Of a DNA stretch of 33,125 nucleotides, positions 10,253 to 32,671 are shown one piece after another; the stretch's first letter is position 1; every line of letters begins with the position of its first letter. The notes beneath the pieces were generated by a model. That model did not search any database. It worked only from the letters and a program-made list of their open reading frames with translations, and was not told the DNA's origin. The stretch is from Nitrospira sp. (GTDB taxonomy: Bacteria; Nitrospirota; Nitrospiria; Nitrospirales; Nitrospiraceae): the NCBI GenBank assembly GCA_016873395.1, contig VGXG01000024.1, forward strand, positions 1 through 33,125, written 5' to 3'. The translations under genes and the position numbers were made by a program.

Positions 10253-10454
10253 CAGGATGCTGAAAAAGTCCGCCAGCTTTGTTCTCGCATCGCTTAGAGG
10301 CTCCACGTACGGCAAAGAGTACGCATCGCCTCCTCGCTCGCTGCGGCCGCGCTGGACGGCCTTTTTGACCATCCTGCAGGGCCACTGCGCCGGCATCCGA
10401 GACGTTCTCGCTCCGACGGTTACAAGGGGACAAGAACAGTTTTTCAGCAGCCTG
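10253..10454. mobile_element. 202-bp MITE-like palindromic element, copy A, target duplication TTAG
   Basis: It begins CAGGATGCTGAAAAAG and ends TTTTTCAGCAGCCTG, so the ends are imperfect inverted repeats. A second, inner inverted repeat pairs the start with GGCCTTTTTGACCATCCTG about 125 bases in. The centre has CGTAC...GTACG. TTAG occurs immediately on both sides (10249-10252 and 10455-10458), a likely 4-bp target duplication. The left TTAG contains the TAG stop of the DUF2726 gene, so insertion left that gene intact. Copy B at 26987 has the same length. The A5/T5-flanked stem could also terminate transcription in both directions. Confidence 0.8.
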
Positions 10455-11103: not shown

Positions 11104-11234
11104 CCATACCGCGCTTGCTAGAAAGTAGTCAGTTTTCAGTCATCAGTCATCAGTCTTCAGTCATGAAACTGAAAACCGAGCACTGAGGACTAATAACTTT
11201 TCCTTTGCTGTGAGCGGAGAGTTATTTTGCCTCC
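11104..11234 (-). repeat. Leader-type palindromic repeat, copy 1 (adjacent to DUF3365 gene)
   Basis: Read toward the gene on the minus strand it has three blocks. The first is GGAGGCAAAATAACTCTCC then CAGCAAAGGAAAAGTTAT. The second is a palindrome of 7-bp words (CAGTNNN, then NNNACTG). The third is CTAGCAAGC followed by GGTATGGAGG, which provides the ribosome binding site of the cytochrome gene. Related copies are at 11255, 18526, 27427 and 29376. AATAACT upstream can pair with AGTTATT. Confidence 0.85.
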
Positions 11235-11254
11235 CGTAGGCTTAAATTCTTCAA

Positions 11255-11369
11255 GCTTGCTAGCGAGTAGTAAGTTTTCAGTCATCAGTCTTCAGCCATG
11301 AAACTGAAAACCGAAAACTGAGGACTGATAACTTTCCCTTTGCTGTGAGCGGAGAGTTCCTTTGCCTCC
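11255..11369 (-). repeat. Leader-type palindromic repeat, copy 2 (tandem to copy 1)
   Basis: Same blocks and orientation as copy 1, but it ends in GCAAGCTTGAAGAATTTAAGCCTAC and runs into copy 1 instead of a gene start. Copy 4 (27427-27620) has the same connecting sequence, so tandem units share a fixed joint. Confidence 0.85.
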
Positions 11370-11524
11370 AGCGAGCTTTGTTTGAATGCCAACACAGCCG
11401 TCTTTGCCCGGATCAGACAGGGGGCCGATGATACTGCAAAGCAGAAGACTGCACAAGGGATCGATTCCGACTGCGTAACGTGGTACAAAGGACTCGGCAA
11501 CTTCAGACAACAGGAGGGTAGCCG
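11370..11524. other. Intergenic stretch, nothing recognised
   Basis: About 155 bases between the tandem repeats and the next gene. It holds the AGGAGGG ribosome binding site (about 11512-11518) of the gene at 11525. No promoter boxes with good spacing were identified. Confidence 0.5.
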
Positions 11525-18412: not shown

Positions 18413-18525
18413 GGCGACGACCCTGCTACGCTACCGGCTGATGTATAATTGACCTCCTCCACATGTCGGAAGTCTGTAAGGAAAGGGGCCTGGCCGCGAC
18501 CAATGGGCGGAGGATGATATTTACT
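18413..18525. other. Intergenic part of the 280-base gap before msrB
   Basis: It contains an isolated TATAAT at 18444-18449 without a good -35 box at the right distance. Nothing else was recognised. The leader-type repeat copy 3 fills the rest of the gap. Confidence 0.4.
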
Positions 18526-18650
18526 GGAGGTAAAATAACTCTCTGCTCACAGCAAAGGAAAAGTTATCAGTCCTCAGTTTTCGGTTTTCAGTTTCATGAC
18601 TGAAGACTGATGACTGAAAACTGACAACACGCTAGCAAGCTTGGTATGGG
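18526..18650 (+). repeat. Leader-type palindromic repeat, copy 3 (adjacent to msrB)
   Basis: GGAGGTAAAATAACTCTC, CAGCAAAGGAAAAGTTATCA, then the palindrome of 7-bp words centred on CAGTTTCATGACTG, then GCTAGCAAGCTTGGTATGGG. It ends within 10 bases of the msrB ATG, and its terminal GGTATGGGGGG supplies the purine-rich ribosome binding site. Confidence 0.88.
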
Positions 18651-26986: not shown

Positions 26987-27188
26987 CAGGATGTTGAAAA
27001 AGGCCCCCAGCTTTGTTCTCGCGTCGCTCAAAACCTTGACGTACGAGAAGAGTACGCCTCGGCTTCTCGCTCGCTGCGGCCTCGCTGGGCGACCTTTTTG
27101 ACCATCCTGCAGGGTCTTGGGAAAACCGTGCAAGCCCTTGCGGTTTCTGGCAATGGAACTTCTTTCTTTGGAGTTTTGGAACAGCCTG
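26987..27188. mobile_element. 202-bp MITE-like palindromic element, copy B, target duplication CTGA
   Basis: It begins CAGGATGTTGAAAAAGG and ends AACAGCCTG. The first 128 bases align well with copy A at 10253, and the remainder is diverged except for the end. CTGA precedes (26983-26986) and follows it (27189-27192), a 4-bp target duplication whose TGA is the stop codon of the CDF gene. Both copies have identical length and the same zero-distance placement after a stop codon. Confidence 0.8.
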
Positions 27189-27426
27189 CTGAGTGCTCGT
27201 CTGTCTCTCCCCTAGCCATAAGCTTTTCCCATCCTTAAGCACTTTTAATCTCCCCTTAATGGCCGTCTCATCTTCCGCTGCTAGGCTGTGCCAACTTGAT
27301 GAGCCAAATCGACTCCGAAGCCCCCTCACCTTAGTCCTCTCCCCCTGGCAAGGGGGAGAGGGGAGGGTGAGGGGGTCGGTCGTTGGTCCAAATAGATTGG
27401 AACAGCACTGGGCTTCACGCCGGATC
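27189..27426. other. Gap between element B and the leader repeat
   Basis: No gene was recognised. It holds the GC-rich palindrome at 27321-27375. The rest is AT-richer, with no clear promoter. Confidence 0.5.
27321..27375. repeat. GC-rich palindrome of the CCCCCTCACC/GGGTGAGGGGG type
   Basis: CCCCCTCACC...CTCTCCCCC pairs with GGGGGAGAG...GGGTGAGGGGG around TGGCAA. This is a common dispersed intergenic palindrome in many bacterial genomes and may fold strongly in RNA. Confidence 0.75.
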
Positions 27427-27620
27427 ACAGCAAAGGAAAAGTTATCAGTCCTCAGTGTTCGGTTCTCAGTTTCATGACTGAAGACTGATGACTGAAAACT
27501 GATGACTGAAAACTGACGACTCGTTAGCAAGCTTGAAGAATTTAAGCCTACCGGTGGCAAAAAAACTATCCGCCACGAGTTGATCGAACGTGGCGGTTCA
27601 AGCGAAGCTTGGTATGGGGG
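27427..27620 (+). repeat. Leader-type palindromic repeat, copy 4 (extended, adjacent to a zinc-ribbon gene)
   Basis: CAGCAAAGGAAAAGTTATCA and a longer run of 7-bp words are followed by TTAGCAAGCTTGAAGAATTTAAGCCTAC. A partial second unit follows, in which the word palindrome is replaced by the hairpin CCGCCACG (27570-27577) / CGTGGCGG (27589-27596). It ends AAGCTTGGTATGGGGG just before ATG 27628. Confidence 0.85.
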
Positions 27621-29375: not shown

Positions 29376-29498
29376 CCATACCAAGCTTGCTAGAGAGTCG
29401 TCAGTTTTCAGTCATCAGTCTTCAGTCATGAAACTGAAAACCGAACACTGAGGACTGATAACTTTTCCTTTGCTGGGGCGGAGAGTTCTTTTGCCTCC
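29376..29498 (-). repeat. Leader-type palindromic repeat, copy 5 (adjacent to small membrane protein gene)
   Basis: Read on the minus strand: GGAGGCAAAAGAACTCTCC, CAGCAAAGGAAAAGTTATCA, the 7-bp word palindrome, then CTAGCAAGCTTGGTATGG, ending at the start region of the gene at 29367. Nearly the same sequence as copies 1-3. Confidence 0.88.
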
Positions 29499-29549
29499 AG
29501 TGAAATATCAGCCCCGCACGGTACACCGAATGACCGGGCTTGTCCATTT

Positions 29550-31542: not shown

Positions 31543-32073
31543 ATGAAGGACTCCGTACCGACGATGAATCTGCTGCTGGTCGGGGTAGCTGCGTTGCTGG
31601 TCTCCACCATTTTTATTTTGGATCTTTTCACACCAATAGGCGTCACGATTCCTCTGTTGTATACCATCCCACTCCTGATCACCTTACTGTCCCCGGAGCG
31701 GTCGTTGTTTTTCACCACAGCCGCCGCCTCGGCCCTGTTGACTATCCTGGGCCTCTTCCTCTCGGCCCCCGGCGGGATTTTCTGGATGGCTTTCACCAAC
31801 CGCGCGCTGGCCGTCCTATCCATCGGGGTGGCAACGGGTTTTTGCCTGCTCCATAAGAAAGTGGCAATGCGGCTCAAGAAGCTGGAAGACCTGCTGCCTT
31901 TCTGTTCAGGTTGCAAACGGGTTCGTGACGACCGGGGCTACTGGAAGCAGTTGGAGCTATACCTGGAAGAGCATGCGGTCACACATTTCAGCCGGGGGCT
32001 CTGTCCGGAGTGCCTGCCGAAAGAGCACGACACGGTGTTGAGCACGCAGGACGCTAGCCCGCATTATTCATGA
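31543..32073 (+). CDS. Membrane protein with C-terminal CxxC...CPEC sensor-type motif
   Basis: A 176-residue protein with three or four hydrophobic helices (about 8-100), then a short coiled linker KKVAMRLKKLEDLL and CSGCKRVRDDRGYWKQLELYLEEHA...GLCPEC. This Cys-bearing motif often follows PAS or membrane domains in histidine kinases and response regulators, but no kinase follows here. ATG 31543 has GGGAGGAG upstream. The last codons SPHYS-stop lie inside the terminal repeat of a mobile element, so the original C-terminus may have been replaced. A redox or metal-sensing role is inference. Confidence 0.82.
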   Translation: MKDSVPTMNLLLVGVAALLVSTIFILDLFTPIGVTIPLLYTIPLLITLLSPERSLFFTTAAASALLTILGLFLSAPGGIFWMAFTNRALAVLSIGVATGFCLLHKKVAMRLKKLEDLLPFCSGCKRVRDDRGYWKQLELYLEEHAVTHFSRGLCPECLPKEHDTVLSTQDASPHYS

Positions 32074-32238
32074 CGGTTCGTCACGAAATCGCGCAGACGC
32101 GTTACGAGACGGGCGCGCGGAGCCGCGAGGGACCGACGCGTACTTGAACAGTACGTTGAGGGACTGAGCAGCGAGCCCGTCCGTCGCAGTAGCGTATCCG
32201 CGATTGCAGTAGAAGCGTTCATGAATAATGCGGGCTAG
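32054..32238. mobile_element. 185-bp MITE-like element C with perfect 20-bp terminal repeats
   Basis: CTAGCCCGCATTATTCATGA (32054-32073) is exactly repeated in inverse at 32219-32238. The outermost CTAG on each side may be a 4-bp target duplication, leaving 16-bp terminal repeats. Inside are AATCGCG / CGCGATT and a central hairpin CGTACT-TGAAC-AGTACG. There is no transposase. The left end provides the stop codon of the gene at 31543, and the right end provides the TAG that stops the truncated vapC. Confidence 0.85.
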
Positions 32239-32390
32239 GATGAGCAGCTTACGATAACGCTCTTTCCCCACTCAGGCGGAGGCGCCGCATACGCCTCCGC
32301 CCCGGGCCTCTCGGAGACGGCCCGGTGGTTACGGTCTTTGCGATTGAGCGCGGCATAGAAAGCGCGCGTGTCCACAAAAACCTCTTTCAT
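32235..32390 (-). pseudogene. vapC: Truncated VapC-like PIN toxin
   Basis: The ORF starts MKEVFVDTRAFYAALNRKDR followed by NHRAV, the typical PIN-toxin N-terminus with the first catalytic Asp. After about 29 residues the sequence turns into non-homologous GC-rich codons, including a perfect hairpin GGCGGAGGC / GCCTCCGCC (about 32275-32301). It stops at residue 51 within the end of element C. Normal VapC has about 130-140 residues, so three quarters, including the other acidic residues, are lost. It overlaps the antitoxin stop by ATGA, confirming the original operon. Confidence 0.82.
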
Positions 32391-32671
32391 CGTTTCTTGT
32401 CGGCCGCTCGGCTGAGGTACTTATATTTGTTCGCGCTGACATCGGGGGCCTTGTCCGCCCCTTTCCCGATCAGCTTGAAAAAAGGGTGTTTCCTGCTAAG
32501 GATACCCTGCCTGCGCCTAGGCTCCTTCAGGTCAAGCTCCTCTCCGGCGATCTTAATCAGCATGGCCCTGGGTTTGCCGTGATAGGTGATGACCACTTCC
32601 TCGCCTTCTTCGACTTCCTGCAGCAGTTCGGCGGTGTTCATCTTGAGCGCCCGCACATTCGTGAACTTCAT
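32387..32671 (-). CDS. Phd/YefM-type antitoxin, orphaned
   Basis: A 94-residue antitoxin of the Phd/YefM fold: MKFTNVRALKMNTAELLQEV then EEGEEVVITYHGKPRAMLIKI. This part binds DNA, and the C-terminal tail (KKR end) would bind the toxin. ATG 32671 follows GGGAG. A longer upstream start is unsupported. The paired VapC gene is truncated by element C and adjacent sequence, so the antitoxin now stands alone. It may still repress its promoter or neutralise related toxins. Confidence 0.88.
   Translation of the reverse strand: MKFTNVRALKMNTAELLQEVEEGEEVVITYHGKPRAMLIKIAGEELDLKEPRRRQGILSRKHPFFKLIGKGADKAPDVSANKYKYLSRAADKKR

What the first reader, a model, noticed from the sequence alone, without database searches (positions are those of the whole stretch)
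32054..32238. Element C replaces a gene's stop codon and breaks a VapC toxin
Perfect 20-bp inverted ends, including CTAG on both sides, enclose a nested palindrome. The left end encodes the last residues SPHYS and stop of the membrane protein at 31543. The right end stops the truncated vapC. Its tetramer CTAG fits the YTRR pattern of elements A and B, although the end sequences differ.
Basis: partly seen in the sequence, partly recalled or inferred. Interest (0 to 1): 0.65.

Follow-up and report, generated by a model that had tools for sequence, protein, structure and literature searches.

The report
Palindromic mobile element at gene ends
The feature is one of about 25 copies, in this Nitrospira-family genome, of a small gene-less jumping element that lands on the sequence C/T-T-A-A/G (which always contains a stop codon); it did not break the toxin gene, and its body is a conserved, self-pairing hairpin whose core is also found inside jumping elements with different ends.

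Summary
The repeat is real: a 177-bp palindromic MITE at 32058-32234 with perfect 16-bp ends, CCCGCATTATTCATGA, between two CTAGs. The genome holds about 25 copies, a complete relative about 110. The exact end occurs in 52 of 79 family genomes and 4 of 216 others in the phylum. Flanking tetramers are 4-bp YTAR target duplications, the pattern of IS5-type transposases. No transposase with these ends was found.

The vapC claim fails. The 51-aa ORF is a vapC-like start joined, 78 bp from the element, to the last ~26 codons of selO; its TAG is selO's own stop. The genome has no other selO. The element supplies the last residues of the membrane protein, but only in its variable tail.

New findings. 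(1) Across 59 copies the whole element is held self-complementary (33 of 61 pairs with double compensatory changes), with conserved tandem G·A mismatches stepping up the stem. So one hairpin core sits in MITEs with different ends. (3) A sister genus shows filled and empty sites at the selO stop.

The parts
32054..32057 (.). left CTAG, target-site duplication copy
32058..32234 (+). 177-bp palindromic MITE; + is the strand carrying the G·A mismatches; nearest copy is L010, 96% identical
32058..32073 (+). left terminal inverted repeat CCCGCATTATTCATGA
32111..32182 (+). GA-ladder hairpin core shared with MITEs that have other ends
32219..32234 (-). right terminal inverted repeat
32235..32238 (.). 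right CTAG, target-site duplication copy; 32235-32237 read on - is the TAG stop of the selO remnant
32235..32315 (-). remnant of selO: about the last 26 codons and the native stop
32316..32390 (-). first ~25 codons of a vapC-like (PIN) gene, fused in frame to the selO remnant
   Evidence: the VapC identity rests on position and motif only (one search gave no family hit for the 24 residues)
32387..32671 (-). Phd/YefM-type antitoxin gene, open, overlapping the vapC-like start by 4 bp
31543..32073 (+). membrane-protein gene (176 aa); codons from 32053 on (A-S-P-H-Y-S-stop) come from the CTAG and the element

Best explanation
The feature is a non-autonomous cut-and-paste transposon (MITE) of a multi-copy Nitrospiraceae family with ends CCCGCATTATTCATGA. 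A DDE transposase of the IS5 kind, acting in trans and not identified, inserts it at YTAR and duplicates those 4 bp. Because YTAR contains TAA or TAG on both strands, a copy that lands on a stop codon leaves the stop in place; here it sits on selO's TAG. Between the ends the element is a rod-like hairpin held under selection, with a core of 2-bp steps separated by tandem G·A mismatches. That core is a module also carried by MITEs with other ends. The vapC-like gene was truncated by a separate rearrangement that fused it to the last selO codons. Shown: copy number, target duplication, covariation, shared core, selO identity. Inferred: the transposase type, selection as the cause of the pairing, and what the hairpin does.
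For: Copies: 28 exact ends in the genome, 24 complete elements extracted, about 110 per strand in complete relative G012, 52 of 79 family genomes against 4 of 216 others. Duplication: of 73 copies with YTAR on both sides, position 1 agrees in 62 and position 4 in 61 (Fisher 2e-9 and 2e-6); a TA-only model shows no association (p = 0.23 and 1.0); 17 copies have identical non-palindromic tetramers TTAG or CTAA. In relatives, several PF01609 (IS4/IS5-like) transposons are flanked by CTAG/YTAR. Structure: 61 pairs, 97.0% of cells paired, 33 pairs and 298 cells with double changes (shuffle means 17.1 and 98.5, 0 of 500 shuffles as high; slid controls 28-46% paired). The innermost tandem mismatch is GA/GA or AA/GA in all 59 copies, while the adjacent 2-bp step switches between GG/CC and CC/GG about half and half. 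Core: model R1, built without the ends, gives as its only hits in the window below E = 0.5 element C (1.6e-18), A (0.007) and B (0.018). In 433 kb of the own genome 8 of its 9 weaker hits lie in elements with CAGGATG-type ends. SelO.
Against: No transposase gene with these ends was found among the IS630, IS1380 or PF01609 members of these genomes, so the mover is inferred from target type alone. In the own genome only 6 of 16 tetramer pairs are identical, so these copies are old, or have recombined, or the rule is looser here. Copies are related to each other, so the shuffle control overstates significance.
Confidence: 0.82

Rival explanations
1. The element was left by recombination between two MITE copies, one behind the membrane gene and one behind selO, which deleted the oxidoreductase gene that lies between them in relatives.
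For: Relatives have membrane gene (+), oxidoreductase (-), selO (-). Core-bearing palindromes sit behind the membrane gene in L080 and L116 and behind selO in L079, L151 and L153. In the window a single element stands exactly between the membrane gene and the selO end.
Against: The window copy is a normal, symmetric family member, 96% identical to copy L010 elsewhere, and its two tetramers agree. The palindromes in the relatives have the other type of ends. The closest orthologue (G011) has no selO there.
Confidence: 0.25
2. It is not a transposon but a REP/ERIC-like regulatory hairpin, an RNA element kept for its effect on transcripts (terminator or stabiliser) and spread by recombination.
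For: Strong covariation, and the G·A-strand RNA is more stable in 59 of 59 copies. Copies often abut ORF ends.
Against: 4-bp target duplications across copies. No clear bias of the G·A strand towards the upstream gene (13 same, 9 opposite in the own genome; crude gene calls). In the terminal repeats G·U and A·C deviations are about equal (26 against 20, p = 0.46), as for double-stranded DNA.
Confidence: 0.1
3. One reading: the element inserted into vapC and truncated it.
For: The 51-aa ORF stops in the right CTAG.
Against: About 78 bp of selO, in frame to its own stop, lie between the vapC part and the element.
Confidence: 0.03

Closest known systems
IS5-family MITEs (IS5 group, YTAR 4-bp target)
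   Same: terminal inverted repeats, no gene, 4-bp YTAR duplication; IS5-like transposons with YTAR flanks are present in the same family of genomes
   Different: no IS with CCCGCATTATTCATGA ends found; long conserved hairpin body shared with other end types
ERIC/IRU, Correia and RUP palindromic elements (from memory)
   Same: 100-200 bp palindromes, mostly between genes, many copies, able to fold as one hairpin
   Different: those are recalled as TA-duplicating elements; here a 4-bp YTAR duplication was measured; no relation of sequence was tested
REP sequences as IS110 targets (PMC1525189; bridge RNA PMC11208160)
   Same: five identical IS110 copies in G012 all sit in copies of this MITE, at one shared site where the left junction was read
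   Different: here the target is a MITE core, not a REP

Membership tests
MITE (non-autonomous DNA transposon) | short, no gene, terminal inverted repeats, many copies | tested here: met
   139-267 bp in the own genome, 16-bp ends, about 25 copies
MITE (non-autonomous DNA transposon) | target-site duplication | tested here: met
   4-bp YTAR association across 73 copies; weak within the own genome alone
MITE (non-autonomous DNA transposon) | autonomous partner with the same ends (helpful, not required) | tested here: inconclusive
   none among IS630, IS1380 and PF01609 transposons of the relatives searched; other transposase families not searched
IS5-family derivative | ends recognised by an IS5 transposase | not testable with these tools
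   only the target type agrees
Tc1/mariner-IS630 derivative | TA dinucleotide duplication, with the neighbouring bases part of the ends | tested here: not met
   no association under this model, p = 0.23 and 1.0
Rfam RNA family | match above the gathering score | tested here: not met
   no match in the element at E <= 1; the single hit (E = 0.089, below gathering) lies outside it at 32262-32328
SelO (remnant ORF) | C-terminal sequence ending SCSS-stop | tested here: met
VapC / PIN domain (ORF start) | profile match | tested here: inconclusive
   24 residues are too short, no hit; inferred from the overlapping Phd/YefM antitoxin and the start motif

The most novel reading that the evidence does not exclude
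The GA-ladder hairpin core is a functional RNA or single-stranded-DNA module in its own right that has repeatedly acquired the ends of unrelated YTAR-targeting transposons, a structured cargo that swaps vehicles, and its repeated landing at gene stop codons is part of how it works or is tolerated.
Probability: 0.3. Interest if true: 0.8.

Novelty: new variant of a known kind. Interest (0 to 1): 0.5.

Why it matters
Bacterial MITEs are usually seen as remnants defined by their ends. Here the conserved part is the inside: a hairpin held by compensatory change, with conserved tandem G·A mismatches, shared by MITEs with different ends. If the core has a function, it gives a handle on why palindromic MITEs persist in compact genomes. 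The YTAR target offers a simple reason why such elements can sit on stop codons without harm. The case also warns that a truncated gene beside a MITE need not have been cut by it.

Tried and rejected
IS1380 (PF13701) and IS630 (PF13358) as the parent: their copies in these genomes have other ends. PF01609 transposons: YTAR flanks but other ends. Long end pairs of about 1.3-1.5 kb in G012 looked like full-length ISs but are IS110 insertions inside the MITE. Two viral-contig matches (L056, L057) are chance matches in coding sequence. A strand-orientation bias relative to neighbouring genes was not found. Plasmid searches with the element and with the fused ORF found nothing. Literature: no paper held contains the inner 13 bases of the end, and no description of such elements in Nitrospira was found; subscription papers and ISfinder were not searchable. 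Quasipalindrome correction (one arm copied onto the other) as the sole cause of the pairing was considered: it should turn G·A mismatches into pairs, yet none of 59 copies has done so at the innermost one; at the next one 11 of 59 copies are paired, so it may act there.

Full report
OBSERVATION. Window 32054-32238 holds exactly what was described: two 20-bp ends that are perfect reverse complements, CTAG included, and a nested palindrome. It is far beyond chance. The 16-mer CCCGCATTATTCATGA occurs 28 times exactly in the 2.34-Mb genome and never in the reversed control; with up to 3 mismatches the ends pair into about 25 elements of 139-267 bp. The window copy is 177 bp; its nearest sibling, L010, is 96% identical.

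DISTRIBUTION. The exact end occurs in 52 of 79 genomes of the same GTDB family and in 4 of 216 other genomes of the phylum (counted). One complete relative, G012, has about 110 ends on each strand at up to 3 mismatches. Named relatives carrying the orthologous locus are Nitrospira and Nitrospirota assemblies, so the host is taken to be a member of the Nitrospira family. One uncultivated viral contig, L029, also carries a copy between CTAGs.

TARGET. The two flanking tetramers are mostly YTAR. Among 73 copies with YTAR on both sides, outer positions agree between left and right as a 4-bp duplication predicts (62 and 61 of 73; Fisher 2e-9 and 2e-6). The alternative, in which only TA is duplicated and the neighbouring bases belong to the ends, shows no association. 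Identical non-palindromic pairs, TTAG/TTAG and CTAA/CTAA, occur 17 times. YTAR is recalled as the target of the IS5 group, and PF01609 transposons with YTAR flanks do exist in these genomes, with different ends. In the own genome only 6 of 16 pairs are identical, so these copies are probably old. YTAR contains TAA or TAG on both strands (sequence logic), so a copy landing on a stop codon leaves the stop intact.

NEIGHBOURS. The minus-strand 51-aa ORF is not a vapC cut by the element. Its last ~26 residues are the C-terminus of SelO, 79% identical in DNA up to the stop, and all SelO ends read in relatives finish ...VSCSS-stop. So the TAG in the right CTAG is selO's own stop. The vapC-like start (about 25 codons behind a Phd/YefM-type antitoxin gene) joins the selO tail in frame near 32315, 78 bp from the element. 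The assembly has no other SelO. In a related genus the order is membrane gene (+), oxidoreductase (-), selO (-), so the window locus has lost most of selO. The membrane gene (no Pfam hit) does take its last residues from the element, but its closest orthologues end about 9-14 residues earlier in a variable tail. In that related genus, G062/L078 has no element at the selO stop and reads straight into the next gene, whereas L079, L151 and L153 have a palindromic element directly behind it: a natural filled/empty comparison for a related element type.

STRUCTURE. On 59 aligned copies the consensus fold has 61 pairs, 97.0% of cells paired, 33 pairs and 298 cells with changes on both sides; no shuffle in 500 reached these values and slid controls drop to 28-46% paired. 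The core is a ladder: an apical stem, then 2-bp steps separated by tandem G·A mismatches. The innermost mismatch is GA/GA in 46 and AA/GA in 13 of 59 copies; the neighbouring step is GG/CC in about half and CC/GG in the other half. Copying of one arm onto the other would erase the mismatches, so their persistence argues for selection on the folded strand. The G·A strand is more stable as RNA than its complement in 59 of 59, and G·U outnumbers A·C deviations in the body (207 to 54), but not in the ends (26 to 20, p = 0.46). The body count leans on an RNA-derived structure, so this is a hint only.

SHARED CORE. In 433 kb of the own genome all strong hits are CCCGC-type; of nine weaker hits eight lie in palindromes with CAGGATG...CATCCTG-like ends. 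Those ends resemble those of an IS5-type transposon of G012. A palindrome in L266 with CATGAGCA ends may be a third type. So a homologous hairpin core is carried by MITEs with different ends.

IS110. Five 100%-identical IS110 copies in G012 sit in copies of this MITE. In the four whose left junction was read (L091, L101, L166, L169) the insertion is at the same point beside the apical stem. IS110 insertion into REP palindromes is known (PMC1525189), and IS110 is guided by a bridge RNA (PMC11208160).

VERDICT. A real, multi-copy MITE, a new variant of a known kind; the 'breaks vapC' claim is rejected, the 'new stop' claim is true but minor. The interesting part is the conserved GA-ladder core and its presence under different ends. 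What moves the element and what the hairpin does are not shown.

Noticed in passing
10253-10381 and 26987-27114: Taken to be elements A and B: MITEs with CAGGATG-type ends resembling an IS5-type transposon of a relative (L265-L268); they share element C's hairpin core.
   Followed up: partly
L091, L101, L161, L166, L169 (G012): Five identical IS110 transposons inserted in copies of this MITE, at one shared site where the left junction was read; a ready natural case of an RNA-guided IS using a MITE as target.
   Followed up: partly
L029:801-1044: A viral contig (IMG/VR) carries a copy of the MITE between CTAGs, a possible vehicle between hosts.
   Followed up: no
window 11116-11378, 18522-18650, 27425-27573, 29376-29508: Another dispersed repeat built on CAGTTTTCAGTCATCAGTC, in both orientations, about 74-98% alike.
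   Followed up: no
L080:4530-4800 and L078:2970-3200: The apical loop of CAGG-type palindromes holds a further inserted palindrome (GAGGTAC...), so these elements nest.
   Followed up: no
G012 copies such as L092, L098, L106: Longer MITE copies (up to 450 bp) carry extra internal hairpin modules such as ACCCGTTGC...GCAACGGGT.
   Followed up: no
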